This document shows, piece after piece, positions 911 through 19,399 of a stretch of DNA of 64,000 nt. Origin of the DNA: Alphaproteobacteria bacterium (GTDB lineage Bacteria > Pseudomonadota > Alphaproteobacteria > Micavibrionales > Micavibrionaceae); contig WGMJ01000003.1 in assembly GCA_016125135.1 (NCBI GenBank), forward strand, positions 310,001 through 374,000, given 5' to 3'. The notes below the pieces were generated by a model, which was not told the origin of the DNA, did not search any database, and saw only the letters and a list, made by a program, of their open reading frames with translations. The stretch's first letter is position 1. Every line of letters begins with the position of its first letter. The position numbers and the translations under genes are program-made.

Positions 911-1597
911 ATGGCCCAGAAACCCTCACCAGCTTCCCGAAAACAGGCCCCGCCGCCGGATCAGGACACAACAGACGCTACAGGTTTGGCCACTGTTATG
1001 ACCCGAAACGCGTTCTACCGCGACGGTTACCGGACAATGTTAAAGGTGGCGCTTGCGCAAGGTGGGGTTATTGTCGCCTTGATTTTATTGCTATTTTTCG
1101 TAATTCAGGGGTCTAAACCTGAAAACCGCTACTTCGCCACGACCGAAGATGGCCGCCTTGTGCCTATGGTGCCGTTAAACGAGCCAAACCTCAGTACACC
1201 CGCTTTAATGTCTTGGGTTGCCCAGTCCGCCACCGAAGTTATGACATTTGGCTTCCATGATTACCGCCGCCGTTTACAAGAATCATCCCGTCATTTTACC
1301 CGTACGGGCTGGGCCAGCTTTACAAAAGCTCTTGAAGATCAAGGTGTTATCACACGTATCGAGGCCAACCGGCAGGTTGTATCGGCCGCGCCTCTGGCCG
1401 CGCCTGTGATTGTATCCGAAGGTATGGTCGGGCCGCGTTATCAGTGGGTGGTCGAGATGCCGATGAGCATTACCTATCAGGCGGGGTCGAAAATCGGCAC
1501 AACCAATATTCTGGCCAAAATGGTGGTGGTGCGGGTCCCGCAGCTTGAAAGCCCGAACGGAATCGGGATCGAGCAATGGATTGCGGTACCACGTTGA
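911..1597 (+). CDS. dotI: Type IVB secretion inner-membrane protein DotI/IcmL (TraM-like)
   Basis: This 228-residue protein has a cytoplasmic N-terminus, one membrane segment at about 45-66, and a periplasmic domain. The family signature is visible in NRYFATTEDGRLVPMVPLNE, followed by the conserved TFGFHDYRRRLQ region. In Dot/Icm and IncI conjugation systems DotI/TraM forms an inner-membrane subcomplex with DotJ and is needed for substrate export. The order dotI-dotH-dotG-dotF that follows matches the type IVB core. The start has only a weak ribosome site (TAGACCCCTCA). Assignment to the family is firm; whether the system moves effectors or DNA cannot be read here. Confidence 0.9.
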   Translation: MAQKPSPASRKQAPPPDQDTTDATGLATVMTRNAFYRDGYRTMLKVALAQGGVIVALILLLFFVIQGSKPENRYFATTEDGRLVPMVPLNEPNLSTPALMSWVAQSATEVMTFGFHDYRRRLQESSRHFTRTGWASFTKALEDQGVITRIEANRQVVSAAPLAAPVIVSEGMVGPRYQWVVEMPMSITYQAGSKIGTTNILAKMVVVRVPQLESPNGIGIEQWIAVPR

Positions 1598-1657
1598 TGA
1601 TTTTGGAAAGAATTCAGAATTTGCGTTCACAAGCGGGATTCAATAAAACTAACTGAC

Positions 1658-2785
1658 ATGAAAAAGTCTTTATACCTACTGCTGGGTGGTTTGCTGTTTT
1701 TCAGCCTTCCTGCTTTTGCGCAAAGCGAGGCAGACCCGCCAATGCCTGTTCCGATCGAGCAATCAATCCAGCAAGGTGAAGGACGTCCCAAAACACTCTC
1801 TGAACTTCTCCAGCAGGGCCAAAACACACAACCGCAACCCGCGCCAGCACAACAGGCACAGGTAACACAAAATACTCCTGCAAGTACAAGCAACGAAGAA
1901 TTGCCGCCCGGCATGATTTTACCCGTTGGTGAAAACGCACTGAACAACATGGTACAGGGTGCAGCCGGTGAAGAGGCGGCAGAAGCGATGATGCGTGAAA
2001 AAGCATTCGGTGCGGCTGTAAACGGCATGATGCCATTGCGCCCGACAGAAATCCGTCGCTTCCTCGAACTTTACGATGAAACCAAGCAAGCTTCGACCGC
2101 CCCTGTGTACGAGCCGCCCAAACCCGAAATTGCTTTTATGCGCGTGTCGCTCGACCCCGGTAAAGCTCCCCTTATTGTGAAGCTGGCACCAGGGAATGTC
2201 ACAACCATCAATATTGTTGATGCCTCGGGCCAGCCATGGCCGATACAAGATGTTAGCTGGGCTGGCAATTTTGAAGTGTTGCAACCAGAAGCAGGTGGAC
2301 ATGTTTTGCGGATCACACCGCTGGCCGATTTCTCACAAGGGAACATTTCGTTACGTCTTGTGCAGCTCAACACACCCGTTATTCTTTCACTCAATACAGG
2401 CCGCGATGTTGTGCATTACCGTCTTGACCTGCAAGTGCCCGAATATGGCCCGAAAGCGAACGCACCTTTAATACAACAAGCGGCCCTGACAATTAGCGCC
2501 GGTGATAAAACCCTGACGCAGGTTTTAGAAGGCGTACCGCCCGAGTCAGCTGTGAAACTGAAAGTTGACGGCATTGATGGCCGCTCGAGCGCATACAAGG
2601 TTAACGAATTTACTTACGTGCGTACACCCTACACATTATTATCGCCCGCGTGGTTTGCCTCTGTTCGTTCAGCTGATGGGATGAATGTTTATGCCCTTGA
2701 AAAAACCCCCGTACTGTTACTGTCCGACAAAGGACAGATGGTGCGCGCCTATGTCCGTGAAGAAGAAACAGAGGCCACACAATGA
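1658..2785 (+). CDS. dotH: Type IVB secretion outer-membrane core protein DotH/IcmK (TraN-like)
   Basis: This is a 375-residue exported protein. A signal peptide covers about residues 1-21 (LPAFA before QSE), followed by a Gln/Pro-rich linker. The conserved DotH/IcmK domain runs from about 95 to 310 and includes MPLRPTEIRRFLELYDET and the VIVxLNTGRDVVHYRLDL-type strand region. DotH, with DotC, DotD, DotF and DotG, builds the outer-membrane core of type IVB systems. The stop overlaps the dotG start as ATGA (2782-2785), indicating translational coupling. The gap from dotI is 60 bp, so one operon is likely. Confidence 0.9.
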   Translation: MKKSLYLLLGGLLFFSLPAFAQSEADPPMPVPIEQSIQQGEGRPKTLSELLQQGQNTQPQPAPAQQAQVTQNTPASTSNEELPPGMILPVGENALNNMVQGAAGEEAAEAMMREKAFGAAVNGMMPLRPTEIRRFLELYDETKQASTAPVYEPPKPEIAFMRVSLDPGKAPLIVKLAPGNVTTINIVDASGQPWPIQDVSWAGNFEVLQPEAGGHVLRITPLADFSQGNISLRLVQLNTPVILSLNTGRDVVHYRLDLQVPEYGPKANAPLIQQAALTISAGDKTLTQVLEGVPPESAVKLKVDGIDGRSSAYKVNEFTYVRTPYTLLSPAWFASVRSADGMNVYALEKTPVLLLSDKGQMVRAYVREEETEATQ

Positions 2786-4437
2786 GTGATATGGACAACG
2801 AACCACAAGACCTGGAACCGGAAGATCTGGATTTCGACACTGACCTTGGAAATAGCAATGGTGGTCAGTCACTGAAAGAGCTTGTAAAGCAGCCTATGGT
2901 CAAGCTTGGCCTTGTTGCCGGTGGCTTTGTGTTGCTCATCATCCTGATATCGACCTTTGGCGGCAGTAAAAAAGAAGCGCCATCAGTTGTTGCGAACGCA
3001 CCCGACATCAAGGAAGCGCCAGGCACACAGGAACTCAGCCCCGCTGTTGCAGAAGCGGTTGAAAGTTTCAACCAGCAAAAACTGGAAGAAGCGATTAAAA
3101 CAGGGCAAAGCTACGTGCCTGTACCAACCGACCCGATCAAGGACCGTTTGCCTGATAGTGGTGGCATGGATGATACAACCGACCCGCTGGCAAAATGGCG
3201 TGAAATGCAGCGCGAGCGTAAAGAGCGCGAAACCGTGCAGCGCCAACAAGCCATGACACAACTGCAAGTGCCGCAAAAACCAACCAAAGACGACGCAGCA
3301 GAAAAAGAAGCATTGAAAGCCATGGCGCAATCCATGAGCAATCATATGAATAGAATTCTGGGCGACCAATCAAAAGATAAAATGCAGTTCTTTGAAGTGC
3401 CCAATGCCGTTGCTGTGGCAACAGGTATGCAGCAACAGCAGGCGGGCCTGGGTAATTTACTGGGCAGCAACACAGCGAATGCAACGCTTGCAAATAACAA
3501 CGCTGCTCTCACGCCAGAACAACAAGCAGCCCTGATGCAGGAGCAGAAAAAGAAAACACTTGTGCCCGCAGGTAAGATTGAATATGCGCAGCTCATTACC
3601 GAAGCCAACACCGATGCCCCGGGCCCTGTGCTCGCTGAAATTGTGAGCGGCCCGTTACGTGGTAGCCGCTTGCTGGGAAGCTTCCGTGACACAAATGATT
3701 ATCTGACGCTCAGCTTCAATACTGTTGTTTATAAAAAAGAGAGTATCCCGATTGAAGCTGTTGCGGTGAACCCTGATAACGCGCTTCCCGGCCTTGTGAG
3801 CGAAATTGACCGCAAATACTGGAGCCGTGTTATTTTGCCTGCCGCTGCCCGCTTTATTGAAGGTATGGGTGAAGCCATCGCCGAGAGTGGCAGCACAACT
3901 GTGACTGTTGACGGTGGTGCAGCTGTTTCAAGCCAGAATGATTTGGATGCAAAACAAGAACTATATAAAGGTGTTGAAAAAGCCGCGGAAGAACTTGGCA
4001 ATATTTTTGAAGAAAACCGCACCGAGCGCCCGACAATTGTTGTTTATTCCGGTACGCCGATGGGCATAATTTTCATGCGGCCCGTTGTTGAAGGCCAGAC
4101 TTACGATGCCATGTATGCCCAACAGCAAGGTCAGGGCGGTTTCTCCCCTTACGGAAACCTGACATCGAACTGGAACGGCATGGGCGGCGGCATTCCGGGC
4201 TTTGGTACAAATAGCTCTTACCAGCCGTATGGCAGTAGTGGTTTTGGTAACACACCGTTAACCGGATATAGTGCACAATTGGGCGCACCAGCTGGCAGCA
4301 CGGGAAGCTTGGGTTACTATCCGTCATACGGAACAGGCTATGGTAATAGTTACAACCCCTATTCGTCCTACCAGCCGACATCCACGCCGACAACAACCGG
4401 CACCGGCAGCACAACAACGACTGGGACAAGCAAATAA
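2782..4437 (+). CDS. dotG: Type IVB secretion channel protein DotG/IcmE (VirB10-like C-terminus)
   Basis: This 551-residue protein has an acidic cytoplasmic head, one membrane segment at about 43-59, and a Gln/Ala-rich periplasmic region. The VirB10/TrbI-like domain is at about 265-435 (GPLRGSRLLGSFRD, LSFNTVVYKKESIPI, then RPTIVVYSGTPMGIIFMRPV). DotG spans both membranes and lines the channel in Dot/Icm machines. At 551 residues it lacks the long pentapeptide-type repeats of Legionella DotG and is nearer the size of IncI TraO. It is unusual in continuing past the VirB10 domain as a low-complexity tail of about 105 residues rich in Gly, Tyr, Ser and Thr, ending in a Thr/Gly tract. Confidence 0.9.
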   Translation: MSDMDNEPQDLEPEDLDFDTDLGNSNGGQSLKELVKQPMVKLGLVAGGFVLLIILISTFGGSKKEAPSVVANAPDIKEAPGTQELSPAVAEAVESFNQQKLEEAIKTGQSYVPVPTDPIKDRLPDSGGMDDTTDPLAKWREMQRERKERETVQRQQAMTQLQVPQKPTKDDAAEKEALKAMAQSMSNHMNRILGDQSKDKMQFFEVPNAVAVATGMQQQQAGLGNLLGSNTANATLANNNAALTPEQQAALMQEQKKKTLVPAGKIEYAQLITEANTDAPGPVLAEIVSGPLRGSRLLGSFRDTNDYLTLSFNTVVYKKESIPIEAVAVNPDNALPGLVSEIDRKYWSRVILPAAARFIEGMGEAIAESGSTTVTVDGGAAVSSQNDLDAKQELYKGVEKAAEELGNIFEENRTERPTIVVYSGTPMGIIFMRPVVEGQTYDAMYAQQQGQGGFSPYGNLTSNWNGMGGGIPGFGTNSSYQPYGSSGFGNTPLTGYSAQLGAPAGSTGSLGYYPSYGTGYGNSYNPYSSYQPTSTPTTTGTGSTTTTGTSK

Positions 4438-9740: not shown

Positions 9741-9788
9741 AATTAAAAGCTTCCTTTTTCAGCGATTTAGCTGCTTCATGTCATTATT

Positions 9789-9805
9789 TTGAAGATTTAG
9801 TTCAA
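9789..9805. promoter_or_regulatory. Palindromic operator, copy 1 (TTGAA-N7-TTCAA)
   Basis: The sequence is TTGAAGATTTAGTTCAA, matching 15 of 17 positions with the copy at 12493 and the same half-sites as the copy at 11041. It lies 86 bp before the 9892 gene. A TCAT followed by a TACATA block lies downstream at nearly the same offset as in the other two copies. Confidence 0.6.
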
Positions 9806-9891
9806 AATAATATAAATTTTTTAATTTTAACAATAATTTTAACACGATCATTTATTATACATAATATAAATATAGAAAATATGTAAGAGAC

Positions 9892-10206
9892 ATGACAATG
9901 GATCGTTTGGCACAAGATAAAAGCACTTTGATAAGGCAGTTTGGCGAGATTGTAACGGGCCAGAGGCAAGGGTCAATTTACTATATGAGAACAAATCCCG
10001 ATGGGTCATGCACAGAAGAACGCGTGAACAGGGACAGCCTTCTCGCAACGGGATCGCTTTTGAGCGCAGCGAACGCATTTATGGAAGCAATGGGTTGCCT
10101 CGGTGGAGGCCAAACAACTTATCAATTGGCCTTAGAGATACGTGATGCCCCGGAACAATTTTTAGCGCGCGTGCCACAGGAAATAGCAGAACGCTTCACA
10201 CGCTAA
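9892..10206 (+). CDS. Hypothetical protein, 104 residues
   Basis: I do not recognise the family. The protein is small and soluble, with a conserved-looking amphipathic C-terminal half (LATGSLLSAANAFMEAMG, then YQLALEIRDAPEQFLARVPQ). A TAAGAGA ribosome site precedes ATG 9892; a second ATG is at 9898. The upstream operator copy links it to the small-protein genes downstream. The 3' end overlaps the convergent winged-helix gene by 11 bp. Confidence 0.6.
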   Translation: MTMDRLAQDKSTLIRQFGEIVTGQRQGSIYYMRTNPDGSCTEERVNRDSLLATGSLLSAANAFMEAMGCLGGGQTTYQLALEIRDAPEQFLARVPQEIAERFTR

Positions 10207-11038
10207 GTGCAAAATAATAGTGGAATTTTTTCTTCAAAGCCGCAGCCTCTTTGGCGTTGCGCTTTATGGTCAGTTTGATGCGTGAGGGCAGTGTCACCGT
10301 TTGTGTAATGGCGCTGATATCAAGATCATCCGGCCCAGTAATGTTTTTATATAGATTAGCCAGGGGCGCGCGTAGCTCGGGTGTAATACGCGTCTCGACA
10401 ATAAAATCATCAACGACGCCAAAGAACTTCTCCATATCCTTATGGAATGGGCTTGTTGAAAATGACCAAAGGCTCCCGCGTGCATCCCAGTGGCGTGCAA
10501 GCAACCGCGCCAGCCAGCCATCCGCGCCAATAATGCGCAAAAACTGACAGTTGGTCGCCTCAACAAGTTTCAGGAATTTCTGCTCGGTGTCCTGACTGGC
10601 CAGATGGAACCAGACAAACGGCACCCACTCATAAAGCTTTTTTTCTTTCGCGTTTTTAATGAGCGACAAATAAACCTCGTTCACATGCGGCATATAAGAC
10701 TGGATCGTGAAGAATTCCAGTTTCTCCTCCTCGCCATCTTCAAGGTTCATCGTATATTCAATTTTGCTGAGCTGGTTATTATAAGCGCGCTGCCAGAACA
10801 TAAATTGCTCGGCCACCCCCAGCGGATCAAGGCTTACTTTTTTCTTGTACTTTTTCAGGAGCCCCTCAGCCTGCAATTTTTCAAAAGCGAGGTAGATCCC
10901 CTTCAGGCTAAAGCTGCGTTTTTTGCTTTCCAGCGTTTGCTGGATCTCGAGTGCGCTTAAGGCCTGCCCTGCGGCTAGCAGGCGGACAATCTCTTCATCG
11001 AGCTGCTTTTCTGGCTTTTTGGTGTCCGTTATACGCAT
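10196..11038 (-). CDS. Winged-helix DNA-binding protein, putative regulator of the local regulon
   Basis: The 280-residue protein carries a predicted N-terminal winged helix-turn-helix (EEIVRLLAAGQALSALEIQQ, then a recognition region KGIYLAFEKLQAEGLLKKYK, residues about 15-66). The C-terminal domain of about 210 residues is uncharacterised (SLWSFSTSPFHKDMEKFFGV) and could be a sensor of the TrmB/ArnR-like kind. Its start lies 2 bp from the palindrome at 11041-11057. On the minus strand that palindrome contains a perfect TATAAT six nt before the ATG, so the mRNA is probably leaderless and binding there would repress the gene. That makes it the best candidate for the protein that reads the palindrome; this is inference. 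Confidence 0.65.
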   Translation of the reverse strand: MRITDTKKPEKQLDEEIVRLLAAGQALSALEIQQTLESKKRSFSLKGIYLAFEKLQAEGLLKKYKKKVSLDPLGVAEQFMFWQRAYNNQLSKIEYTMNLEDGEEEKLEFFTIQSYMPHVNEVYLSLIKNAKEKKLYEWVPFVWFHLASQDTEQKFLKLVEATNCQFLRIIGADGWLARLLARHWDARGSLWSFSTSPFHKDMEKFFGVVDDFIVETRITPELRAPLANLYKNITGPDDLDISAITQTVTLPSRIKLTIKRNAKEAAALKKKFHYYFALSV

Positions 11039-11040
11039 TT

Positions 11041-11057
11041 TTGAATTATAACTTCAA
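11041..11057. promoter_or_regulatory. Palindromic operator, copy 2, overlapping the winged-helix gene promoter
   Basis: The sequence is TTGAATTATAACTTCAA. It lies directly before the winged-helix gene (minus strand), where it includes that gene's TATAAT -10 (11045-11050). Its start is exactly 57 bp before the promoter block of the 41-residue gene on the plus strand. A site at this position could repress one gene and activate the other. Confidence 0.65.
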
Positions 11058-11097
11058 AAAATTACCAAATAAAGCCCTTTTCCACTCCTCATGCCCA

Positions 11098-11122
11098 TTT
11101 CATGAGATATTTTACATATAAC
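11098..11122 (+). promoter_or_regulatory. Repeated promoter block, copy 1
   Basis: A 25-bp stretch identical to 12550-12574 begins TTTCATGAGATA and ends in TACATATAAC. It holds a -10-like TATAAC (11117-11122), 26 nt before the start codon at 11149. There is no good -35, which fits an activator-dependent promoter. Confidence 0.7.
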
Positions 11123-11148
11123 AAAAAAACAACACAGGGAGAAAAACG

Positions 11149-11274
11149 ATGGGACTAACAGGCGCAGAAAGCATGGGTATGGGCAGTCAATTCCAGACAG
11201 CAATGGAAGCAGCTGAAGCAGATAAGCATCCATGTAACACGGTAAATGCTTTGCTACTTGGCATGAACCGCTAA
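11149..11274 (+). CDS. Small protein, 41 residues, under the shared promoter block
   Basis: The short frame starts MGLTGAESMGMG and ends NALLLGMNR. A strong AGGGAG ribosome site lies 7 nt before the ATG, and the promoter block and operator are shared with the 12604 gene. No signal peptide or membrane helix is visible; it has a single Cys near residue 29. It sits 32 bp before the 372-residue gene and is likely co-transcribed. Function unknown. Confidence 0.6.
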   Translation: MGLTGAESMGMGSQFQTAMEAAEADKHPCNTVNALLLGMNR

Positions 11275-11306: not shown

Positions 11307-12425
11307 ATGATACCAGCAACTTTTAATGACCAAGCAACAGCAGTTCAACCATCGGTCGATTCTGATATTGCAAATATAGAAACCCGTCTCGCTACACTCA
11401 TAGCTGCAGCCGAGGCGATAAACACAAATCTGCCTCAAGGCGTACAAATCAGAATCCGGCCAAGCTCCTTTATTGAGAGTTCTAAAGAAGAGTTGGTAGA
11501 GATTGCTGCAGGTACAGCCACGTTAGAGGAAGGCGATACGCTCGAAAGCTTGCGCGCACAATGCCTTGCAGACATAGCCGCTATTTCCCTATCGATCAGC
11601 ATTCCCAGTGCGGGTAGGGAGGATGCGGCCTCACTGGATGTAAGGGACTTACAACTTGATAACCCTGTGGCTGCTGTTGCGGCGCTGGTACGCACGCAAA
11701 TTGAAAAGGTTGGCTATGTGACCCGCGCAGATAAAGTCGTAAAGGCAACAAAAATTGTTGATGTCGCCGAAATGCTGGGTGACATTGCAAAAGACCCGCG
11801 CGCTTTACTGCACCCACAGTTTCTAAAGGAGGCATCATTAGCAGCACAGGCACCATTCTTTGCAAGCAAAGGGAACGATACTTTTATGGATGCCTATGTG
11901 CAGAATGTACTCGGCGCAGATGCAAGCGAGTATATTGTGAAGGCCATTACACAAATTTGTGGACGCAAGGGTTCTGATGGCGTAAGGCACGCCCATGTTC
12001 TTGCGGGGCATGAAGAAGAGAACGTTGAAAGAATAGCTGAAATTAATGCCATTGCCGATCAAGCTGAACGAGAGAGAAGACTTGCAGCACTGGAAGAACG
12101 CTCTTCCGAGCGTAGAAGCGATATGGCAGAAATTCATGCGAGAATGCGCATATTGATCGAAGGCTCTGCGAGAACGCTCGCCGCCATTGAACAGGAAGGA
12201 ACAGATGTTTTTAATCAGGCTGTGCGTATTCTGGAAGTTGCCACAAGTCTGGATGGTGATCCTTTGAATGCTCTGGAATACCCAGGTGTCGTCGGACTTG
12301 ACCGGAATCAGACAGGTCCTGAACAACAAGCAATACTTGATACAGTTCTGGCCCTGCCGAATATCGTCACGCAAGCGGCTAAAATTGCGGAGCCGCGCAT
12401 GCAAATGCCGACGCAAAGCGTGTAA
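11307..12425 (+). CDS. Hypothetical protein, 372 residues, mostly helical
   Basis: I do not recognise the family. It is a soluble, largely alpha-helical protein with a central charged helix (EINAIADQAERERRLAALEE, about 248-267) that may form a coiled coil. It has no signal peptide. The ribosome site AAAGGAG lies before the ATG. It follows the 41-residue gene in the same direction and ends at a hairpin terminator, forming a two-gene unit. The style (long N-terminal Ala/Asp-rich helices, no known motif) resembles the 257- and 322-residue proteins farther along. Confidence 0.65.
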   Translation: MIPATFNDQATAVQPSVDSDIANIETRLATLIAAAEAINTNLPQGVQIRIRPSSFIESSKEELVEIAAGTATLEEGDTLESLRAQCLADIAAISLSISIPSAGREDAASLDVRDLQLDNPVAAVAALVRTQIEKVGYVTRADKVVKATKIVDVAEMLGDIAKDPRALLHPQFLKEASLAAQAPFFASKGNDTFMDAYVQNVLGADASEYIVKAITQICGRKGSDGVRHAHVLAGHEEENVERIAEINAIADQAERERRLAALEERSSERRSDMAEIHARMRILIEGSARTLAAIEQEGTDVFNQAVRILEVATSLDGDPLNALEYPGVVGLDRNQTGPEQQAILDTVLALPNIVTQAAKIAEPRMQMPTQSV

Positions 12426-12457: not shown

Positions 12458-12495
12458 CAGAAACCCTGCTGGCCTGTGCGCTGGCAGGGTTTTTG
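12458..12495 (+). terminator. Intrinsic terminator after the 372-residue gene
   Basis: The stem AAACCCTGC / GCAGGGTTT (12461-12469 with 12484-12492) has a 14-nt loop and is followed by TTTTG. The right end touches the next operator copy. Confidence 0.85.
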
Positions 12496-12509
12496 AAGTT
12501 TTACTTCAA
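12493..12509. promoter_or_regulatory. Palindromic operator, copy 3
   Basis: The sequence TTGAAGTTTTACTTCAA is a near-perfect inverted repeat (TTGAAG/CTTCAA). Its start is 57 bp before the promoter block at 12550, the same offset as copy 2 to its block. Confidence 0.65.
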
Positions 12510-12549
12510 ATTATGCGCAAAATTGGTCGTTTTCCCCCGTAAACCGTCG

Positions 12550-12574
12550 TTTCATGAGATATTTTACATATAAC
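12550..12574 (+). promoter_or_regulatory. Repeated promoter block, copy 2
   Basis: Identical over 25 bp to 11098-11122, with the -10-like TATAAC at 12569-12574. It lies 29 nt before the 50-residue gene. The sequence between operator and block is only partly similar in the two copies, so the identity is local. Confidence 0.7.
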
Positions 12575-12603
12575 GATAACAAACAAAAACGGGGAGAAAT
12601 AAA

Positions 12604-12756
12604 ATGGAAGCACTAAATGCAATAAACAAAAAAGTAAAAACAGCTTGGGACATGAGCATTGAAGATAATGGCGCTGGCATGATTCCTGAGTTCGCACGTG
12701 AGAACATGGCCGCGGTACGCAGCGAAAACACAACAGCTTACAAAATGGCAGCTTAA
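12604..12756 (+). CDS. Small protein, 50 residues, paralog of the 16404 protein
   Basis: It starts MEALNA and has TAW near residues 13-15. The C-terminal block NMAAVRSENTTAYKMAA is shared with the 16404 protein, whose block ends KLAA. The DNA of this block is also nearly identical, with few synonymous changes. A GGGGAG ribosome site lies before the ATG. It forms a single-gene unit between its own promoter block and a bidirectional terminator. There is no signal peptide, no double-Gly leader and no membrane helix. Function unknown; a regulatory microprotein or a precursor peptide are both possible. Confidence 0.75.
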   Translation: MEALNAINKKVKTAWDMSIEDNGAGMIPEFARENMAAVRSENTTAYKMAA

Positions 12757-12785
12757 TAAAATTTACACCCACCAACCCAGCAAAT

Positions 12786-12815
12786 AAAAACCCCGCTTTG
12801 ATGAGCGGGGTTTTT
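12786..12815. terminator. Bidirectional intrinsic terminator
   Basis: AAAAACCCCGCT, a six-nt loop (TTGATG), and AGCGGGGTTTTT form a perfect 12-bp inverted repeat between the 50-residue gene and the convergent hpf. Confidence 0.92.
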
Positions 12816-12830
12816 CTATTTTTAGAGACA

Positions 12831-13439
12831 CTACTTCGTGCCGTTCAGCTTGTCGAGTTGCGGGTCAATCCAGCCTATATTCCCGTCAGGCCTGCGGTAA
12901 ACAAGATTCAGGCCCTTGTTGCCGGCATTACGGAACAAAAGCACAGGCTGGTCAGACAAATCCATCCGCATCACCGCTTCGGAAACTGTGAGCGTCACAA
13001 TATCCGTTGTCATTTCAGCAATCACCACCGGCTCGTCTTTTTCTTCTGCTTTCTCATCATGGGATGAATCAAGCAATTGTGCGGCCAGCACGTAATCACG
13101 CGCTTTGATTGATTCAACCTCGGCTGAAGTTTCATGCTTGTTATGATGGTCACGTAGTTTGGTTTTGTATTTGCGTAGCTGTTTTGCAACTTTTGCCGCC
13201 GCTGCATCGAATGCTGCATAGGGGTCGGTTTCTTCGGCTGTGCCTTGTACTTTGATATCCTTGCCGACATGAAGCGCGATATGGCATTTGAAAAATGCCG
13301 AACCTTCCGGCGAAATTGTTACAGCAGCATCTGTGAGGCGGTTAAAATATTTGTCTTTGATTTCTGAAATTTTCTCTTCGATATGCTCTTTGAGGGCATC
13401 CCCCAAACTTAATTGTTTGCCCTGAATAACGACTTGCAT
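12831..13439 (-). CDS. hpf: Ribosome hibernation promoting factor, long form
   Basis: This 202-residue protein has an S30AE domain at about 1-105 (MQVVIQGKQLSLGDALKEHI). The C-terminal dimerisation domain is at about 145-200 (AVMRMDLSDQPVLLFRNAGN, NLVYRRPDGNIGWIDP). Long Hpf drives 100S ribosome dimers in starvation. In proteobacteria it commonly lies downstream of rpoN, as it does here with one nudix gene between. An AAGGAGA ribosome site precedes the ATG. Confidence 0.94.
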   Translation of the reverse strand: MQVVIQGKQLSLGDALKEHIEEKISEIKDKYFNRLTDAAVTISPEGSAFFKCHIALHVGKDIKVQGTAEETDPYAAFDAAAAKVAKQLRKYKTKLRDHHNKHETSAEVESIKARDYVLAAQLLDSSHDEKAEEKDEPVVIAEMTTDIVTLTVSEAVMRMDLSDQPVLLFRNAGNKGLNLVYRRPDGNIGWIDPQLDKLNGTK

Positions 13440-13540
13440 GACGTGTTCTCCTTACTTATTTCTCGGATAATTAAAATAGTGCTTTTTGAATAAAAGGACA
13501 TGAGATTCTTTAATTTTATGCCTGAAATCTTAAAGGCCAC

Positions 13541-14089
13541 TTAAAGCGCTTTTTTAGACAGAATCTCGTGAATGAGCCCCAAATGTGCAATTGGCGCTAT
13601 CTCGCCACGTGCCATCATCGCTTTCATCGCAGCCAGATCGACCCACGCCGCTTCAATATCCTCGCCGTAATCAAGGTTACGTTCATTAGTTTCGATAAAA
13701 TCATTCACGAAAAATAATGTCACGCGGCCGGTGCTGGCAACAGGGTCTATCACATATTCACCGATCTTCTCGGCCTTTGTTGCAACAACACCTGTTTCTT
13801 CTTTTAGTTCACGCAAAGCAGCTTGCAGCGGCTCTTCACCCTTCTCAAGGCGGCCCGCTGGCAACTCCCATGTTAAAATATTATTCGGGTAACGGTTCTG
13901 CCGCTCCAGCAAAACTTTGCCATCGGGCGAGAGAACAAAAATAGCAACCCAGCTATGGTTGATACGGTAATGGTAGCCTTGCAGCAATTTGCCGCCCGGT
14001 AACTCCACATCATCGCGCATAAGTGTGTAATACGGATTCTCGTATACTGTTTCGCTTTTCAGCTGCTTCCAGCTTTTCGGATTCGTCAT
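13541..14089 (-). CDS. NUDIX hydrolase, ADP-ribose pyrophosphatase type
   Basis: The 182-residue protein contains a perfect Nudix box at residues 79-101 (GRLEKGEEPLQ...RELKEETGV). The preceding strand WELPAG is typical of ADP-sugar pyrophosphatases. It hydrolyses nucleoside-diphosphate-linked substrates, most likely ADP-ribose. Its start overlaps the rpoN stop (ATGA, 14086-14089), so it is translated with rpoN. Confidence 0.9.
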   Translation of the reverse strand: MTNPKSWKQLKSETVYENPYYTLMRDDVELPGGKLLQGYHYRINHSWVAIFVLSPDGKVLLERQNRYPNNILTWELPAGRLEKGEEPLQAALRELKEETGVVATKAEKIGEYVIDPVASTGRVTLFFVNDFIETNERNLDYGEDIEAAWVDLAAMKAMMARGEIAPIAHLGLIHEILSKKAL

Positions 14090-15522
14090 GATTGCAATTT
14101 CTTCATGCGGCGGCGCTGCACGGATGACGCAATACCTGCAGCTTCGCGGTATTTAGCAACAGTTCTACGTGCGATCTCGATATTTTCTTTTTGCAGCAAA
14201 GTAACAAGATCATCATCCGAGAGGATATTATCAAGCGTTTCAGCATCAATCAGTGTTTTAATGCGCGCCTTCACCGCTTCCGATGAATGTACAGCCCCGC
14301 CATCATCACCGCCAACACCTGAAGTGAAGAAGTATTTCAGCTCAAAAATGCCGCGCGGCGTACCAATAAACTTGGCCGTTGTCACGCGTGAAACTGTACT
14401 TTCATGCATTTGTATTTTTTCAGCGATTTCTTTCAGCGTCATTGGTTTTAAAAATTCAACGCCATAAAGGAAAAACGGTTCCTGTTCCTCGATAATTTCT
14501 GCGGCAACTTTCAGGATCGTCTGGGCACGGCTATCAAGCGCTTTCACAAGCCAGCTGGCATTGTTCAAATGCGTATCCATAAATTGCTTGGCGGCTTTGT
14601 CCTTCGTGCCCGTTACCACATCGGCATAATATTGCTGGTTGATAAGCACACGCGGCAAGGTTGCGTGGTTCAGTTCTACACGCCAGCCGCCGCCCTCATT
14701 CTTGGGCTTTTTGCGCATCAACACATCGGGCAGGGCCGTTTGCACAACAAAATGCTCGAACGTAGAAGCAGGCTTGGGGTTAAGCGCGCGGATATGGGTG
14801 AGAATTTGCTGTATATCCTCAACGCCCACCTCGCAAATTTTTGCAAGCCCCTTCAAATCATGGGCTGCAACCTTATCCAGATTTTGCAGCAAAATTTCGG
14901 CCTCCTCGGTCAGCTGCCCGCGCTCGAAAAGCTGGGCCGCCAGACACTCTTCCAAATTCCGTGCAAAAATACCCGCAGGGTCAAGCTGCTGGAGCTTTTT
15001 CAATACTATTTCAAGCTTTTCCACATCAACACCAAGGCGGGTGCTCAAAACGGCAAGGTCTTCGCGCATATAGCCTGCTTCATCAAGGCTATCGAGTAGC
15101 AGTAACGCGAGGCGATATTCCTTATCGTCTGTTATCTCGACAGCAATCTGGTCATATAAATGTGTGCGTAAATCTTTTGGTTTTTCAATTGTGGCAAGCG
15201 GGTCATATTCATTGTCCTCGAATTTACTGTTGCCACCCGCGCCGACTGTTGCCATTTCAGAGCCTGTATCAAACGCGGTTTCCATGGCATCAGGTTGTTC
15301 ATCACGCGGCTCGTTCGTCTCTTGTGTCTCGTCTTCACCGCTATCCTCGTTCGGCCCTTTTTCAAGCAGCGGGTTCTGTGCAATTTCTTCTTCCAGAAAC
15401 GCCGCCAGATCCATATTCGACATTTGCAGCAATTTAATGGCCTGCTGCATTTGCGGCGTCATCACCAGATTCTGCTGCTGCTTGGTCGAAAGATTTTGCG
15501 AAAGAGTGGGCGTTTGTGCCAT
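14086..15522 (-). CDS. rpoN: RNA polymerase sigma-54 factor
   Basis: The 478-residue protein has a Gln-rich N-terminal activator-interaction region (MTPQMQQAIKLLQMSNMDLA). An acidic linker (about 55-110) is followed by the core-binding domain, a helix-turn-helix (HESTVSRVTTAKFIGTPRGI) and the RpoN box ARRTVAKYRE at about 451-460. It directs -24/-12 promoters that need an enhancer-binding ATPase. It follows the TrmB-type gene by 16 bp on the same strand, so the order is regulator-rpoN-nudix, with hpf after a 101-bp gap. Confidence 0.96.
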   Translation of the reverse strand: MAQTPTLSQNLSTKQQQNLVMTPQMQQAIKLLQMSNMDLAAFLEEEIAQNPLLEKGPNEDSGEDETQETNEPRDEQPDAMETAFDTGSEMATVGAGGNSKFEDNEYDPLATIEKPKDLRTHLYDQIAVEITDDKEYRLALLLLDSLDEAGYMREDLAVLSTRLGVDVEKLEIVLKKLQQLDPAGIFARNLEECLAAQLFERGQLTEEAEILLQNLDKVAAHDLKGLAKICEVGVEDIQQILTHIRALNPKPASTFEHFVVQTALPDVLMRKKPKNEGGGWRVELNHATLPRVLINQQYYADVVTGTKDKAAKQFMDTHLNNASWLVKALDSRAQTILKVAAEIIEEQEPFFLYGVEFLKPMTLKEIAEKIQMHESTVSRVTTAKFIGTPRGIFELKYFFTSGVGGDDGGAVHSSEAVKARIKTLIDAETLDNILSDDDLVTLLQKENIEIARRTVAKYREAAGIASSVQRRRMKKLQS

Positions 15523-15538
15523 GCCCCTATTTTACCAT

Positions 15539-16315
15539 TCAATCAGGGGCGTGGAAACCCCACAGCATTTCATAGACCAAGCGGAGGGATTGGTTAATAC
15601 GGACATTCCGCAGGATGATGCCCCCTACGGGCGGGAGAGGGGAGTAAATCAGCACTTTGTCGGCATAGAGATAAAAAGAGATCTGGAACTGTTTTTTCGG
15701 GTCATCGAAATAGCGGACGCTGCGTTTTGTGCGCTCATCATTCTGCCAGCCCTTTTCATCAGCGGCTGTGCGCGGGGCAATAATCCGGATGGGGAACATA
15801 TATTTCTCACGACGTGAAACAATGTAGGAATCCCCGCCGGGCAAGTATTTGCGCACATGCTGGCCTGAGGAAATATTCAGTATTTCTTTGTCATCCGAAA
15901 CGCGCAGCGACAAAAACAAATCGTCATACATCTGGCGGATTGCATCCGGCCCTTCGAAGAAACGCACTTCGGTTTCGGCTTCGCTTGCCTTCATTTTTTG
16001 CAGCAACGGAATGGCAGCTTTCAAACTATCTGTCAGTTGCTCCTGCTGGAATAATAATGTTTCCGGCGGGATTGCCTTATAGCGGGAGCGCTTGCCGTCC
16101 TTCGCCTTGGTCAGAACGCCCCTTTCCAGCAAACGGCTAATAATCAGGTCACAGGAAGTGCGCTTTATTTTGGTCGTTTCGGCTATCTCGTATGAAAATC
16201 CTCCATCTTTCATGTTCAGAACAGCCACATAGACACGCGCCTCTAATGGCTTGAAACCAAGGTTTTTAAAGATATTTGTGAGTTCTGCGATCATTACTCT
16301 CTCATAATACGCCAT
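15539..16315 (-). CDS. TrmB-family transcriptional regulator
   Basis: The 258-residue protein has an N-terminal TrmB winged helix (NLGFKPLEARVYVAVLNMKD, IKRTSCDLIISRLLERGVLT, about 15-80). A short coiled coil follows at about 90-110, then a TrmB-like C-terminal domain (RQMYDDLFLSLRVSDDKEIL, residues 120-250). TrmB proteins sense sugars or other small ligands. A later Met (16294) is an alternative start. It is divergent from the 52-residue small-protein gene with a CtrA-box-containing gap, so it may control that gene. Confidence 0.85.
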   Translation of the reverse strand: MAYYERVMIAELTNIFKNLGFKPLEARVYVAVLNMKDGGFSYEIAETTKIKRTSCDLIISRLLERGVLTKAKDGKRSRYKAIPPETLLFQQEQLTDSLKAAIPLLQKMKASEAETEVRFFEGPDAIRQMYDDLFLSLRVSDDKEILNISSGQHVRKYLPGGDSYIVSRREKYMFPIRIIAPRTAADEKGWQNDERTKRSVRYFDDPKKQFQISFYLYADKVLIYSPLPPVGGIILRNVRINQSLRLVYEMLWGFHAPD

Positions 16316-16321
16316 AAATAA

Positions 16322-16338
16322 TGGAATTTTTACTAAAA
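16322..16338. promoter_or_regulatory. Degenerate operator copy
   Basis: The sequence TGGAATTTTTACTAAAA matches 13 of 17 positions of the operator at 12493 but lacks the right half-site. It lies between the TrmB gene and the 52-residue gene. No promoter block follows at +57, so it is a weak call. Confidence 0.25.
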
Positions 16339-16345
16339 TTTATAT

Positions 16346-16360
16346 TTAACATAATATTAA
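16346..16360. promoter_or_regulatory. CtrA-type full box upstream of the 52-residue gene
   Basis: TTAACATAATATTAA is a perfect TTAA-N7-TTAA, the binding site of the alphaproteobacterial cell-cycle regulator CtrA. It lies 43 bp before the ATG at 16404. AT-rich surroundings make a chance match possible. Confidence 0.45.
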
Positions 16361-16403
16361 ATCATGGGCGCTGGGGAGCATCCAAAAACAAGGGAGAGAG
16401 AAA

Positions 16404-16562
16404 ATGGAAAAACTAAACGCAAGACAAAATGATCTGATGACAGCCTGGGTAGAACTGACAATGGGCAACATGGTTCCTGATTGCGCAATCATCAGTCAAT
16501 TCGCAGGCAACATGGCCGCAGTACGCAGCGAGAACACAACAGCTTACAAACTAGCTGCTTAA
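16404..16562 (+). CDS. Small protein, 52 residues, paralog of the 12604 protein
   Basis: It starts MEKLNA, has TAW at residues 13-15, and ends GNMAAVRSENTTAYKLAA. This C-terminal block is almost identical to that of the 12604 protein in both residues and codons, while the middle differs (including a Cys near residue 27). An AGGGAGAG ribosome site precedes the ATG. Unlike its paralog it lacks the 25-bp promoter block and has a CtrA box instead. It is followed 30 bp later by the 257-residue gene, so a two-gene unit is likely. Function unknown. Confidence 0.75.
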   Translation: MEKLNARQNDLMTAWVELTMGNMVPDCAIISQFAGNMAAVRSENTTAYKLAA

Positions 16563-16592: not shown

Positions 16593-17366
16593 ATGACAAA
16601 CACAATTATAGCATCAGTAAAAGCAGCAAGGGGCACAATAACAACACGCGGCTATGAGCCAAGGGTGGGGCTTGATTGCGGCGCATCTGCAGATGGCAAC
16701 AACTATAGCAGACGCATAGGCATTGTTGATTATGCACTGATGCCAGGAAACCTCAGCTATACAACCGTAGACCGCCGCGCAGATTTGTGGGCATCCACAA
16801 CCGATACAAATGAAGAGATGTTCGCGAAATTGCTGTCACTCGCTGACGAACTGGGCGCTGACAATATCAACATACATTATATGCAAGACGACCTTAACGG
16901 CTATGAAACAGCCCGTTTGATGGGCGCCCTGCTTGCGGCTGCGCAATCCTACAAGAATGGGCAAACAAATCCGTTTCTTCTTGCACGCGAAGTGGAAGAA
17001 TTCGAATGCCAGATGGATATAGAGCACGTTGGCGCAACAGCGCTTGCTGCTGCGAGACGTTTTCAGGCAGAAAGAGAGGAAAGGCACATCAGGGCGTGGG
17101 GCGGCCCGAATGAAGGCCACTATCTGAATCAACCTATCTCGGATGAAGAAGTGCAGAAAGAGGTCAAAGATAAACGGGCAAGCCAACAATCACTGCAAGA
17201 AGCATGGCGAATGGGCTTGGCAATGAGCCACGAGATTGGCAAGGCTATGGTGACTGATGAAGCAACTGTGAGGCCGCTGATCAAACAAATGATTGAGTTC
17301 ATGGAAGCAAGACCGCCGGTTGCAGCGGGTCCGCAACAACACGCAAATACGCGTCAATTCGGTTAA
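16593..17366 (+). CDS. Hypothetical protein, 257 residues
   Basis: I do not recognise the family. It is a soluble protein with an N-terminal beta-rich part (YEPRVGLDCGASADGNNYSR, IGIVDYALMPGNLSYTTVDR). A helical middle follows (LADELGADNINIHYMQDD; ARLMGALLAAAQSYKNG) and then a charged helical C-terminal half. A GGGGAGA ribosome site precedes the ATG. It shares a likely transcript with the 52-residue small protein, so the two may act together. The stop is merged with a 27-bp repeat that also follows the next gene. Confidence 0.65.
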   Translation: MTNTIIASVKAARGTITTRGYEPRVGLDCGASADGNNYSRRIGIVDYALMPGNLSYTTVDRRADLWASTTDTNEEMFAKLLSLADELGADNINIHYMQDDLNGYETARLMGALLAAAQSYKNGQTNPFLLAREVEEFECQMDIEHVGATALAAARRFQAEREERHIRAWGGPNEGHYLNQPISDEEVQKEVKDKRASQQSLQEAWRMGLAMSHEIGKAMVTDEATVRPLIKQMIEFMEARPPVAAGPQQHANTRQFG

Positions 17367-17456
17367 ACAAGTTCTCTCTCCCCAGAGAGTGGGGTTGGGT
17401 AAAAGATAGAGCGACTATCAAAAGCCCGACCCCGCCAGAGAGGAGGGGATTAAAGA
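17363..17456. repeat. Intergenic hairpin repeat (REP/MITE-like), full copy
   Basis: The first 27 bp (17363-17389, starting at the preceding TAA stop region) recur exactly at 18453-18479. The left arm (CTCTCTCCCCAGAGAG, then GGGGTTGGG) pairs imperfectly with the right arm (CCCGACCCC, then CCAGAGAGGAGGGGATT). This gives a long imperfect stem with an AT-rich centre. It lies between two genes of the accessory block and may also terminate transcription. Confidence 0.55.
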
Positions 17457-17487: not shown

Positions 17488-18456
17488 ATGAGTATTATAA
17501 CAACACCATCAATATCAAATAACTTTGAACGTACAAATGTTTTAGGCCGTGACGCGGTTTCAAACATGATTAGCGAAGGCCACCAATTTTTCACACCAGG
17601 CATAGACGACGAACAGGTTGCACAGGCTTTTATAAATCATGTGCAGGATATGCGCCGCCAGCTTCTACTGCGCGAGCAACTTGCGAACATACCATTAAAG
17701 GATCTGTTGCACTCAATAAAAAACTTTGCAACACCAGCAGGCGCAGTTGATCCTGCAAACTTAACAGCTGAACAACGTGACAGAGTAGAACGTATGGTAG
17801 AACCTTATATCAGGCTTTGGATCGACCTTGAAAGATCCAGCAAGGGCGTTACAGCGACCTACCTTACAGAGAAAGCTGTGCCACTACTCAGCCTATGTTC
17901 TGAAGAGGCCGCCAGCAGCTTCCAACAAGAAATTGACGCCTTTAATGCCACACGTGAAGAAAGGCTTGAAATACTTCGCAGTATACCAAGAAGTGAAACG
18001 CTAGACATTGTTGTTGTTGATGTTGATGGCACACTTATTCTTGACGATAATGGTGAGCTACAGCTGAACGAAGAAGTCATTCAAACCTTGCGCTTACTGC
18101 AGGCTGCAGGCGTCCCATTCCAGATTGCAACATTGGGCGACCCTGAAAACCGTCTTGCTGCTTTACGTGCGCTCGGTATGGATGAAAGCCTGCTTGTAAA
18201 TGGTGTTGTTGATAAGGAAATATTTGCAGGCAAGCGTGTTTTAGGTGTTATTGACGATACAAAAGCCGAAGCGCAGTTCATCAAAACGATGAGCGATTAC
18301 ACAGTCAACAGTGTTTACGGCAGTATGACCAACCATTCGGGCGACACGCTATCACCTGAAAGAGTGGCAGCCTCGCTCATTGAGGCACACCAAAGCTGGG
18401 TGCGAGCCCGCGCAGAAATTGTTGTTGAAAGTAACAATACACCAACAACACTTTAA
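17488..18456 (+). CDS. Unknown N-terminal domain fused to a HAD-like phosphatase domain
   Basis: The start is placed at ATG 17488 because it follows a GGGGAG ribosome site of the same form as neighbouring genes; a TTG at 17473 is less likely. The first 165 residues are helical and unrecognised. The C-terminal part has HAD motifs: motif I DVDGT at 178-182, a threonine-containing strand FQIATLGD as motif II, and GVIDDTKAEA as the acidic motif IV. This suggests a phosphohydrolase or phosphotransferase, possibly on a protein or nucleotide. The N-terminal domain may give specificity. It ends in the second copy of the 27-bp repeat. Confidence 0.7.
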   Translation: MSIITTPSISNNFERTNVLGRDAVSNMISEGHQFFTPGIDDEQVAQAFINHVQDMRRQLLLREQLANIPLKDLLHSIKNFATPAGAVDPANLTAEQRDRVERMVEPYIRLWIDLERSSKGVTATYLTEKAVPLLSLCSEEAASSFQQEIDAFNATREERLEILRSIPRSETLDIVVVDVDGTLILDDNGELQLNEEVIQTLRLLQAAGVPFQIATLGDPENRLAALRALGMDESLLVNGVVDKEIFAGKRVLGVIDDTKAEAQFIKTMSDYTVNSVYGSMTNHSGDTLSPERVAASLIEAHQSWVRARAEIVVESNNTPTTL

Positions 18457-18479
18457 ACAAGTTCTCTCTCCCCAGAGAG
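18453..18479. repeat. 27-bp repeat, second copy (left arm only)
   Basis: Exact match to 17363-17389, again merged with a gene's TAA stop. The small hairpin CTCTCT/AGAGAG is present but the right arm of the longer element is not. Confidence 0.6.
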
Positions 18480-18550
18480 CGTGGCTGGTGGTAGAATGGG
18501 TCGCTCCCGTTCACACCGGCTGCGCATTTTTATAGAAGATTGGTTTTTAC

Positions 18551-19399
18551 ATGAAAAATATTATTGCTGTTCTTATTGCCGTTACTGCTGTCAGTTACTT
18601 CTGGTTTTCAAACCAGTCTGTAAAACCTGCTGCGCAAGCAACAAATCAAAAAGCTTTTGCCCGCATAATGAAAACAGGCGAGCTGCGCTGCGGGTATTTT
18701 CCGATGCCCCTGATGCTTGAGAAAGACCCGAATACAGGCGCTATGATAGGTGTTTTGTTTGACTATATGACAGCACTTGCAGAAGCAGCCGATATAAAAA
18801 TCAACTGGGCTGAAGAAATAAACCTCGCCACCTACACACAAGATATTACGAATGGCCGCTACGATGTAGAATGCGCAGGTGGCTGGGCCAATGCGCTGCG
18901 TGGCAAGCATTTATACTACGTAGAGCCTATTGCCTATTACCCCGTCTATGCCTATGTGCGCGGCGATGACACACGTTTTGATGCGGATTACGAAGCCATC
19001 AACAAGCCTGAGATAAAGGCTGCTGTGCTGGACGGTGAAACCTCGGCACTGATCAGGCAGCGCCGCTTCCCGCACACTACAGCACATGAAGTGCCACAAA
19101 TGGCGGGCGCACCAGGCATGATGTTATTACAGGTGACAACGGGTAAGGCAGATGTGGCTTTTGCCGATGCCGCCACCGCGCAGGAATTCTTAAAATCAAA
19201 CCCCAACAGTATAAAGCCGTTGAAGCAGGAGACCTTGCGCCTGATCCCCATCAGCGTGTCAGTCGCGCGAGGCGAGGCAGATTTGCAGCAATTCCTGAAT
19301 ACAGCCACCACCGAAATGCAGCTTGACGGCATGATTGAAAGAATTCTGCAGAAATACGACCCCGCAGGCGAAGTGTTTATTCACGTTCAAGCGCCGTAA
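18551..19399 (+). CDS. Extracellular solute-binding protein, family 3 (ABC importer), paralog 1
   Basis: The 282-residue exported protein begins with an N-terminal hydrophobic segment at 3-20 that has no clear cleavage site. The family 3 fold begins at RIMKTGELRCGYFPMPLM and continues with DYMTALAEAADIKINWAEE. It binds an amino acid or similar small polar solute in the periplasm. It precedes a permease, a second binding protein and an ATPase in the same direction, giving one import system. Two Cys (in LRCGYF and VECAGG) match positions in the second paralog (LRCAFT, ALCSML) and may form a disulfide. Confidence 0.85.
   Translation: MKNIIAVLIAVTAVSYFWFSNQSVKPAAQATNQKAFARIMKTGELRCGYFPMPLMLEKDPNTGAMIGVLFDYMTALAEAADIKINWAEEINLATYTQDITNGRYDVECAGGWANALRGKHLYYVEPIAYYPVYAYVRGDDTRFDADYEAINKPEIKAAVLDGETSALIRQRRFPHTTAHEVPQMAGAPGMMLLQVTTGKADVAFADAATAQEFLKSNPNSIKPLKQETLRLIPISVSVARGEADLQQFLNTATTEMQLDGMIERILQKYDPAGEVFIHVQAP

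What the first reader, a model, noticed from the sequence alone, without database searches (positions are those of the whole stretch)
12604..16562. A new small-protein family with an invariant C-terminal block
The 50- and 52-residue proteins (12604-12756 and 16404-16562) share ME-x-LNA at the start, TAW near residue 14 and NMAAVRSENTTAYK-x-AA at the end, with a diverged middle. The DNA for the end block is nearly identical, including the TAATAA stop, although the genes are 3.8 kb apart under different upstream elements. A strongly conserved tail with a variable centre suggests a recognition tag, as in precursor peptides, toxin parts or regulatory microproteins. Neither has a secretion signal.
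Basis: partly seen in the sequence, partly recalled or inferred. Interest (0 to 1): 0.75.

Follow-up and report, generated by a model that had tools for sequence, protein, structure and literature searches.

The report
Twin orphan microproteins, one conserved tail
Two tiny proteins encoded by one little-known bacterium are duplicate copies whose last 17 residues are held constant while the middle drifts; they look like real, regulated genes, seen so far in this genome only, and what they do is not yet known.

Summary
ORFs 12604-12756 (50 aa) and 16404-16562 (52 aa) are whole-gene paralogues. Their last 57 nt are 91% identical; dN/dS is about 0.1 in the tail and 0.6 in the first 15 codons, and the middle has drifted about as far as a neutral sequence would. 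Both look translated: strong Shine-Dalgarno, coding-like base usage, and for the 50-aa gene its own terminator.

The 50-aa gene also has one of only three exact genomic copies of a 19-nt palindrome; all three are at this locus, each with a TATAA 59 nt downstream, around an orphan regulator-like gene. The 52-aa gene heads another unit, divergent from a TrmB-type regulator and ahead of an amino-acid-type ABC transporter.

"Family" means two members in one genome: no significant match in 57 other relatives, 141 of the order, 384 of the class, or the genome, viral, phage and plasmid collections.

Best reading: a lineage-restricted, regulated intracellular microprotein pair whose tail is the working part and, ending -[ML]AA, perhaps a ClpX-type degron (inferred). 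Rival: the tail is a type IVB secretion signal; DotI/DotH/DotG-like genes lie 8-12 kb from the 50-aa gene. Novel as sequence, modest in kind.

The parts
12604..12756 (+). 50-aa microprotein gene (paralogue 1), apparently monocistronic
   Evidence: coding-like base usage z 4.1 against nucleotide shuffles
16404..16562 (+). 52-aa microprotein gene (paralogue 2), first gene of a unit with the 257-aa gene 30 nt downstream
   Evidence: z 3.4
12703..12759 (+). conserved tail block incl. TAATAA, copy 1
   Evidence: D1; dN 0.04, dS 0.38 over 17 codons
16509..16565 (+). conserved tail block incl. TAATAA, copy 2
   Evidence: D1
12492..12510 (.). palindromic operator-like site TTTGAAGTTTTACTTCAAA upstream of the 50-aa gene
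11040..11058 (.). operator-like site between the 280-aa regulator-like gene and the 41-aa/372-aa unit
9788..9806 (.). third operator-like site, upstream of the 104-aa gene
12550..12579 (+). promoter-like element holding TATAAC, 59 nt after the operator; 93% copy of 11098-11127
   Evidence: not reported by the sigma-70 consensus scan
11098..11127 (+). promoter-like element of the 41-aa/372-aa unit, same 59-nt spacing
   Evidence: not reported by the sigma-70 consensus scan
12458..12495 (+). intrinsic terminator after the 372-aa gene
   Evidence: 16-pair stem; fold z -5.1
12786..12815 (+). intrinsic terminator after the 50-aa gene
   Evidence: 13-pair stem; fold z -5.25
10196..11038 (-). 280-aa orphan protein, possible winged-helix regulator of the three operator-like sites
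   Evidence: only weak FUR match E 0.017, below cut-off, and hhalign E 0.051, probability 1%, to the TrmB set; position beside the operator
11149..11274 (+). 41-aa ORF, first gene of unit 1
   Evidence: z 2.6
11307..12425 (+). 372-aa orphan protein, second gene of unit 1
   Evidence: no relative at E<=0.01 in 37 other relatives
9892..10206 (+). 104-aa orphan gene behind the third operator-like site
   Evidence: no Pfam/NCBIfam/PHROGs match
15539..16315 (-). TrmB-type regulator, divergent from the 52-aa gene
   Evidence: Pfam TrmB E 3e-11
16342..16362 (.). AT-rich palindrome/core-promoter-like element before the 52-aa gene (arms 16344-16349 and 16357-16362)
   Evidence: read by eye; no TTTGAA-type operator here
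16593..17366 (+). 257-aa orphan protein downstream of the 52-aa gene
   Evidence: no relative at E<=0.01 in 57 other relatives
17488..18456 (+). 322-aa protein with a divergent HAD-like C-terminal domain
   Evidence: Pfam Hydrolase E 7e-5, below cut-off; TIGR00099 E 3e-4, below cut-off
17363..17398 (+). 36-nt 3' element copy 1 (starts at the 257-aa stop)
18453..18488 (+). 36-nt 3' element copy 2 (starts at the HAD-like stop)

Best explanation
The two ORFs are genuine, translated, paralogous microproteins of one alphaproteobacterial lineage. SHOWN by sequence: duplication of the whole gene, purifying selection on the 17-residue tail, a near-neutral middle, two different control regions, and a cluster of three operator-like sites of which one belongs to the 50-aa gene. 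INFERRED: they act inside the cell (no signal peptide or hydrophobic stretch by inspection) as small regulatory or adaptor proteins made on demand. The conserved tail is the working surface, and its -[M/L]-Ala-Ala end makes the protein short-lived by ClpXP, so that the dose follows promoter activity. The 50-aa copy would serve the regulon of the 280-aa regulator-like protein, and the 52-aa copy the TrmB/transporter unit.
For: Tail dN 0.04 vs dS 0.38; first 15 codons dN 0.36 vs dS 0.58; middle DNA similarity fits a neutral divergence of 0.5-0.7. Coding-like base usage, z 4.1 and 3.4. Starts behind GGGGAGAAAT and AAGGGAGAGAG Shine-Dalgarno sequences. The 50-aa gene sits between two strong terminators. 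Its promoter element occurs twice in the genome at up to 3 mismatches, reversed control 0. Its palindrome has 3 exact sites in the genome, all here, each with TATAA 59 nt downstream. Degron part: both proteins end in Ala-Ala. [quoted passage not shown] Of 54 larger window ORFs, 2 end in AA. The genome's own tmRNA tag also ends in AAAA.
Against: No functional homologue or structure: the AlphaFold2 model is two helices at mean pLDDT 62.8, too weak to use. The AA end is shared by descent, so it counts once. The tail has 14 conserved residues before the variable M/L that a degron need not have, and the tmRNA tag is otherwise unlike it. dN/dS rests on few changes (3.5 synonymous, 1.5 non-synonymous in the tail). 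The sigma-70 consensus scan does not report the TATAAC element as a promoter, and counts of promoter-like (20 vs 13.3 shuffled) and terminator-like sites (16 vs 12.6) in the region are within about two standard deviations of chance. One match of the reversed control pattern was found in the palindrome search. No expression data.
Confidence: 0.35

Rival explanations
1. The conserved tail is a C-terminal translocation signal for the type IVB secretion system whose DotI/DotH/DotG-like genes lie at 911-4437; the microproteins are exported.
For: T4BSS_DotI_IcmL E 1e-57, T4BSS_DotH_IcmK E 1e-77 and TrbI E 4e-9 in the same window. [quoted passage not shown] the tails have Leu/Met at -3, and the 41-aa (Met) and 104-aa (Phe) orphan proteins of the locus also have a hydrophobic residue there. 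A T4BSS can act on rival bacteria (PMC9519443, abstract in the listing, passages).
Against: The EExxE and FxxxLxxxK signals named are absent from the tails (by eye). The 372-, 257- and 322-aa proteins of the locus have no hydrophobic residue at -3/-4 and do not share the tail. Further secretion genes were not found among the 10 of 13 upstream ORFs (120 aa or more) given to Pfam; completeness in the genome is unknown.
Confidence: 0.12
2. Quorum or signalling peptide, or RiPP-like precursor: the tail is released or modified.
For: Short precursor-like length and an almost identical tail.
Against: No modification, protease or peptide-exporter family among the 25 neighbours given to Pfam. In typical RiPPs the leader is conserved and the core varies (recalled), the opposite of this. 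No signal peptide by inspection.
Confidence: 0.06
3. Toxin or antitoxin small protein.
For: Orphan small ORFs in separate, regulated units.
Against: No partner gene shared by the two units and no hydrophobic toxin-like segment (by inspection); no PADLOC match for either protein.
Confidence: 0.07
4. The repeat is a DNA or RNA element (recombination site, structured RNA) and the ORFs are incidental.
For: The DNA itself is 91% identical over 57 nt including both stops.
Against: In the tail codons plus stop, substitutions fall 1/0/4 on codon positions 1/2/3 and dN/dS is about 0.1. Between the copies lie core genes (hpf-type, NUDIX, sigma-54), not an element. No Rfam match in the window at the gathering score.
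Confidence: 0.05

Closest known systems
Lineage-restricted (orphan) bacterial small proteins
   Same: short, no homologues found, local paralogues, real-looking expression signals
   Different: here a sharply bounded constrained tail and two different regulatory contexts
ClpX-type C-terminal degrons (ssrA-like, ending Ala-Ala)
   Same: both end [M/L]-Ala-Ala
   Different: a longer conserved block upstream (NMAAVRSENTTAYK); the genome's own tmRNA tag differs
Dot/Icm (type IVB) C-terminal translocation signals
   Same: C-terminal position, hydrophobic residue at -3, secretion-core genes in the window
   Different: no EExxE, no FxxxLxxxK; tail not shared with the larger orphan proteins of the locus
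RiPP precursors
   Same: length
   Different: conserved end and variable centre instead of conserved leader (recalled); no maturation enzyme among the neighbours scanned

Membership tests
Protein-coding gene pair (versus chance ORFs) | purifying selection in frame | tested here: met
   tail dN 0.04 / dS 0.38; substitutions 1/0/4 by codon position in the tail; small numbers
Protein-coding gene pair (versus chance ORFs) | translation and transcription signals | tested here: met
   Shine-Dalgarno, terminators around the 50-aa gene, shared promoter-like element; the element is not a sigma-70 consensus hit
Protein-coding gene pair (versus chance ORFs) | detected peptide or ribosome footprint | not testable with these tools
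   no expression data held
Wider protein family | members in other genomes | tested here: not met
   0 of 57 other relatives at a significant E (four at 0.41-0.81); 0 of 141 others of the order at E<=0.01 (three at 0.04-0.09); 0 of 384 others of the class; none confirmed in genome contigs, viral contigs, phages, plasmids
ClpX C-terminal degron substrate | C-terminal Ala-Ala | tested here: met
   both sequences; importance per PMC7652416 passages
ClpX C-terminal degron substrate | ClpXP-dependent turnover | not testable with these tools
   needs pulse-chase
Type IVB effector signal | EExxE or FxxxLxxxK near the C-terminus | tested here: not met
   tails printed, read by eye; motifs named
Type IVB effector signal | hydrophobic residue at the extreme C-terminus | tested here: met
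   Leu or Met at -3; a weak, common feature
Type IVB effector signal | a complete secretion system in the genome | tested here: inconclusive
   DotI, DotH, DotG-like genes at 911-4437; none more among 10 of 13 upstream ORFs; genome not surveyed
RiPP precursor | adjacent modification enzyme | tested here: not met
   25 neighbours scanned with Pfam; the radical SAM protein found is 33-37 kb away

The most novel reading that the evidence does not exclude
A self-contained, species-specific circuit: an orphan regulator with three exact operator sites in the whole genome drives orphan proteins and a microprotein. A duplicated copy of that microprotein has been placed in front of a TrmB-controlled transporter operon. 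Both copies share a constrained C-terminal tail that addresses them to one cellular machine (ClpX or the type IVB secretion coupling complex), making the tail a new native address tag.
Probability: 0.15. Interest if true: 0.65.

Novelty: new member of a known kind. Interest (0 to 1): 0.36.

Why it matters
If translated, the pair is a clean natural experiment on how a new microprotein gains function: one copy sits in a tiny local regulon and one at the head of a unit before a transporter, and selection marks which 17 residues matter. It also gives a defined tail to test as a native degron or export address in a little-studied alphaproteobacterial lineage. As it stands it is a two-member orphan family without a demonstrated function.

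Tried and rejected
tmRNA mimicry: I suspected the tail copies the organism's own ssrA tag; the tag reported is ANDNSMFVAANDNREVAFAAAA, so no. GHKL-ATPase relation: Pfam gives HATPase_c_3 E 0.01 and Antibiotic_NAT E 0.031 for the 50-aa protein, both below cut-off, and a histidine-kinase-like ORF of the same genome matches at E 0.059. The HATPase-like stretch is the variable EDNGAGM part, absent from the 52-aa copy, so I treat it as chance. Mobile-element ends: rejected, since core genes lie between the copies. Small proteins beside other TrmB homologues: genes divergent from seven homologues (L016-L022) were read by eye and none looked like the pair. In one search I read the wrong side for the minus-strand loci (L015, L017, L020-L022); redid L017 and L020-L022, and L015 is the window's own gene. 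Structure of the 280-aa protein: mean pLDDT 39.6, unusable, so no fold search was run. A relationship of the 280-aa protein to TrmB was not shown (BLASTP E 0.91; hhalign probability 1%).

Weak hits not followed to a conclusion: four at E 0.41-0.81 and three at E 0.04-0.09, each covering part of the query; I count them as chance. One search printed plus-strand ORFs only, so it does not settle the minus-strand ones among the four. The three were not looked at.
Full report
Observation. The two ORFs are present as described: 12604-12756 (50 aa) and 16404-16562 (52 aa), both on the + strand. Their alignment shares ME-x-LNA, TAW and a 17-residue end block. The DNA of the end block with both stops is a 57-nt repeat at 91% identity. 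A search of the genome with one protein recovers the other at E = 9.9e-7 and 7.0e-7. The window lies in an unnamed 2.2-Mb genome of 23 contigs, 99.79% complete. Its tmRNA matches the Rfam family alpha_tmRNA at 232.5 bits against a cut-off of 50, which only 1 of 14 control genomes passes.

Coding status. In the 17 tail codons dN is 0.04 and dS 0.38; in the first 15 codons dN is 0.36 and dS 0.58. The middle DNA reaches a score that 0.7% of 3000 shuffles reach, and that score is typical of a neutral sequence at divergence 0.5-0.7, given the gaps I imposed from the observed alignment. The middle protein alignment is not better than shuffles (p = 0.26). So this is one duplication of the whole gene, followed by purifying selection on the tail, weaker constraint on the start and near-neutral drift in the centre. 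The numbers of changes are small (codon-position counts 1/0/4 in the tail plus stop). Base usage by codon position resembles that of the window's ordinary genes (z 4.1 and 3.4). Both ATGs follow strong Shine-Dalgarno sequences.

Control of the 50-aa gene. It lies between two terminator hairpins, 12458-12495 and 12786-12815, the longest stems of the scan, although the total count of such sites is near chance (16 against 12.6); they fold at z -5.1 and -5.25. Upstream is a 30-nt element that copies (93%) the one before the 41-aa/372-aa unit. Its 23-nt core occurs only at these two places in the genome at up to 3 mismatches, with none for the reversed control. The sigma-70 consensus scan does not list it. 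Farther upstream each has a near-perfect palindrome, and a third copy precedes the 104-aa gene. In the genome the shared pattern has three exact sites, all here; four further places match with 2 mismatches, and the reversed control gives 1 match. A TATAA lies 59 nt after the palindrome in 3 of 3 sites; the 9788 site has another TATAA at 5 nt. The 11040 and 12492 sites are copies of each other in the promoter element, so they are not independent; the 39 nt between palindrome and element agree at 17 of 39 positions there. If TATAAC is the -10 box, the palindrome is centred near -80, a class I activator distance (inference, recalled). The 280-aa gene reads away from the middle palindrome and its start codon lies 1 nt from it, so its product is the natural candidate regulator. 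Its winged-helix nature is only hinted at, and it has no relative at E<=1e-4 in 37 other relatives.

Control of the 52-aa gene. It has no such palindrome. It is divergent from a TrmB-type regulator (Pfam E 3e-11) and 30 nt ahead of a 257-aa orphan gene, for which no relative was found in 57 other relatives, genome contigs, viral contigs or plasmids. Then follow a HAD-like protein (below cut-off) and ABC transporter genes: a binding protein nearest to the lysine/arginine/ornithine kind but below its cut-off, a permease and an ATPase. In relative G017 the TrmB homologue is divergent directly from a binding protein homologous to the one at 18551 (33% identity, E 2e-54). The 52-aa, 257-aa and HAD-like genes are therefore probably additions between a regulator and its transporter. 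The other TrmB homologues read have different neighbours. A 36-nt element follows the stops of the 257-aa and HAD-like genes; its 19-nt core occurs only there at up to 2 mismatches.

Distribution. Besides the two copies: 0 of 57 other relatives at a significant E-value (four at E 0.41-0.81), 0 of 141 other genomes of the order at E <= 0.01 (three at 0.04-0.09), 0 of 384 other genomes of the class at E <= 0.01. None was confirmed among 71 pattern matches in genome contigs or 45 in viral contigs; there was no match in phages or plasmids at E <= 1 with the 52-aa protein. These genome sets overlap, and the genome and viral scans start from short patterns, so distant relatives can be missed. No other species of the genus is listed, so the blank may reflect sampling. 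The string VRSENTTAY is in none of the held papers.

Function. Pfam, NCBIfam, PHROGs and PADLOC give nothing above cut-off for either protein; the solved-structure search gives only E >= 0.054. The predicted model is two helices with mean pLDDT 62.8. I judge the pair to be intracellular regulatory or adaptor microproteins with the tail as the working part. The Ala-Ala end fits ClpX recognition as described in PMC7652416 (passages). The type IVB alternative deserves a test because DotI, DotH and DotG-like genes lie at 911-4437, but two of the three signal types named in the passages are absent from the tails. RiPP, toxin and DNA-element readings are disfavoured as listed.

Papers: PMC7652416, PMC9519443 and PMC7251119 were seen as passages, and as listing entries; all others only in search listings. 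The statements on RiPP architecture and class I activator distances are recalled.

Noticed in passing
window 9788-9806, 11040-11058, 12492-12510: Three exact copies, the only exact ones in the genome, of a 19-nt palindrome pattern, each with TATAA 59 nt downstream: a local regulon of orphan genes beside an orphan regulator-like gene.
   Followed up: partly
window 911-4437: DotI/IcmL, DotH/IcmK and DotG/TrbI-like genes: part of a type IVB secretion core in an alphaproteobacterium.
   Followed up: partly
window 17363-17398 and 18453-18488: 36-nt element right at two stop codons. Its complement contains GGGAGAGAGAA, identical to the Shine-Dalgarno stretch of the 52-aa gene, so the 3' element could pair with that start site.
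   Followed up: partly
L016, L017, L021 upstream of TrmB homologues: AATAACA-N7-TGTTATT palindrome before the regulator gene in three loci (read by eye), a likely TrmB-type operator; not seen before the 52-aa gene.
   Followed up: no
window 11149-11274: 41-aa ORF heading the 372-aa unit, a further small orphan protein without visible relation to the pair.
   Followed up: no
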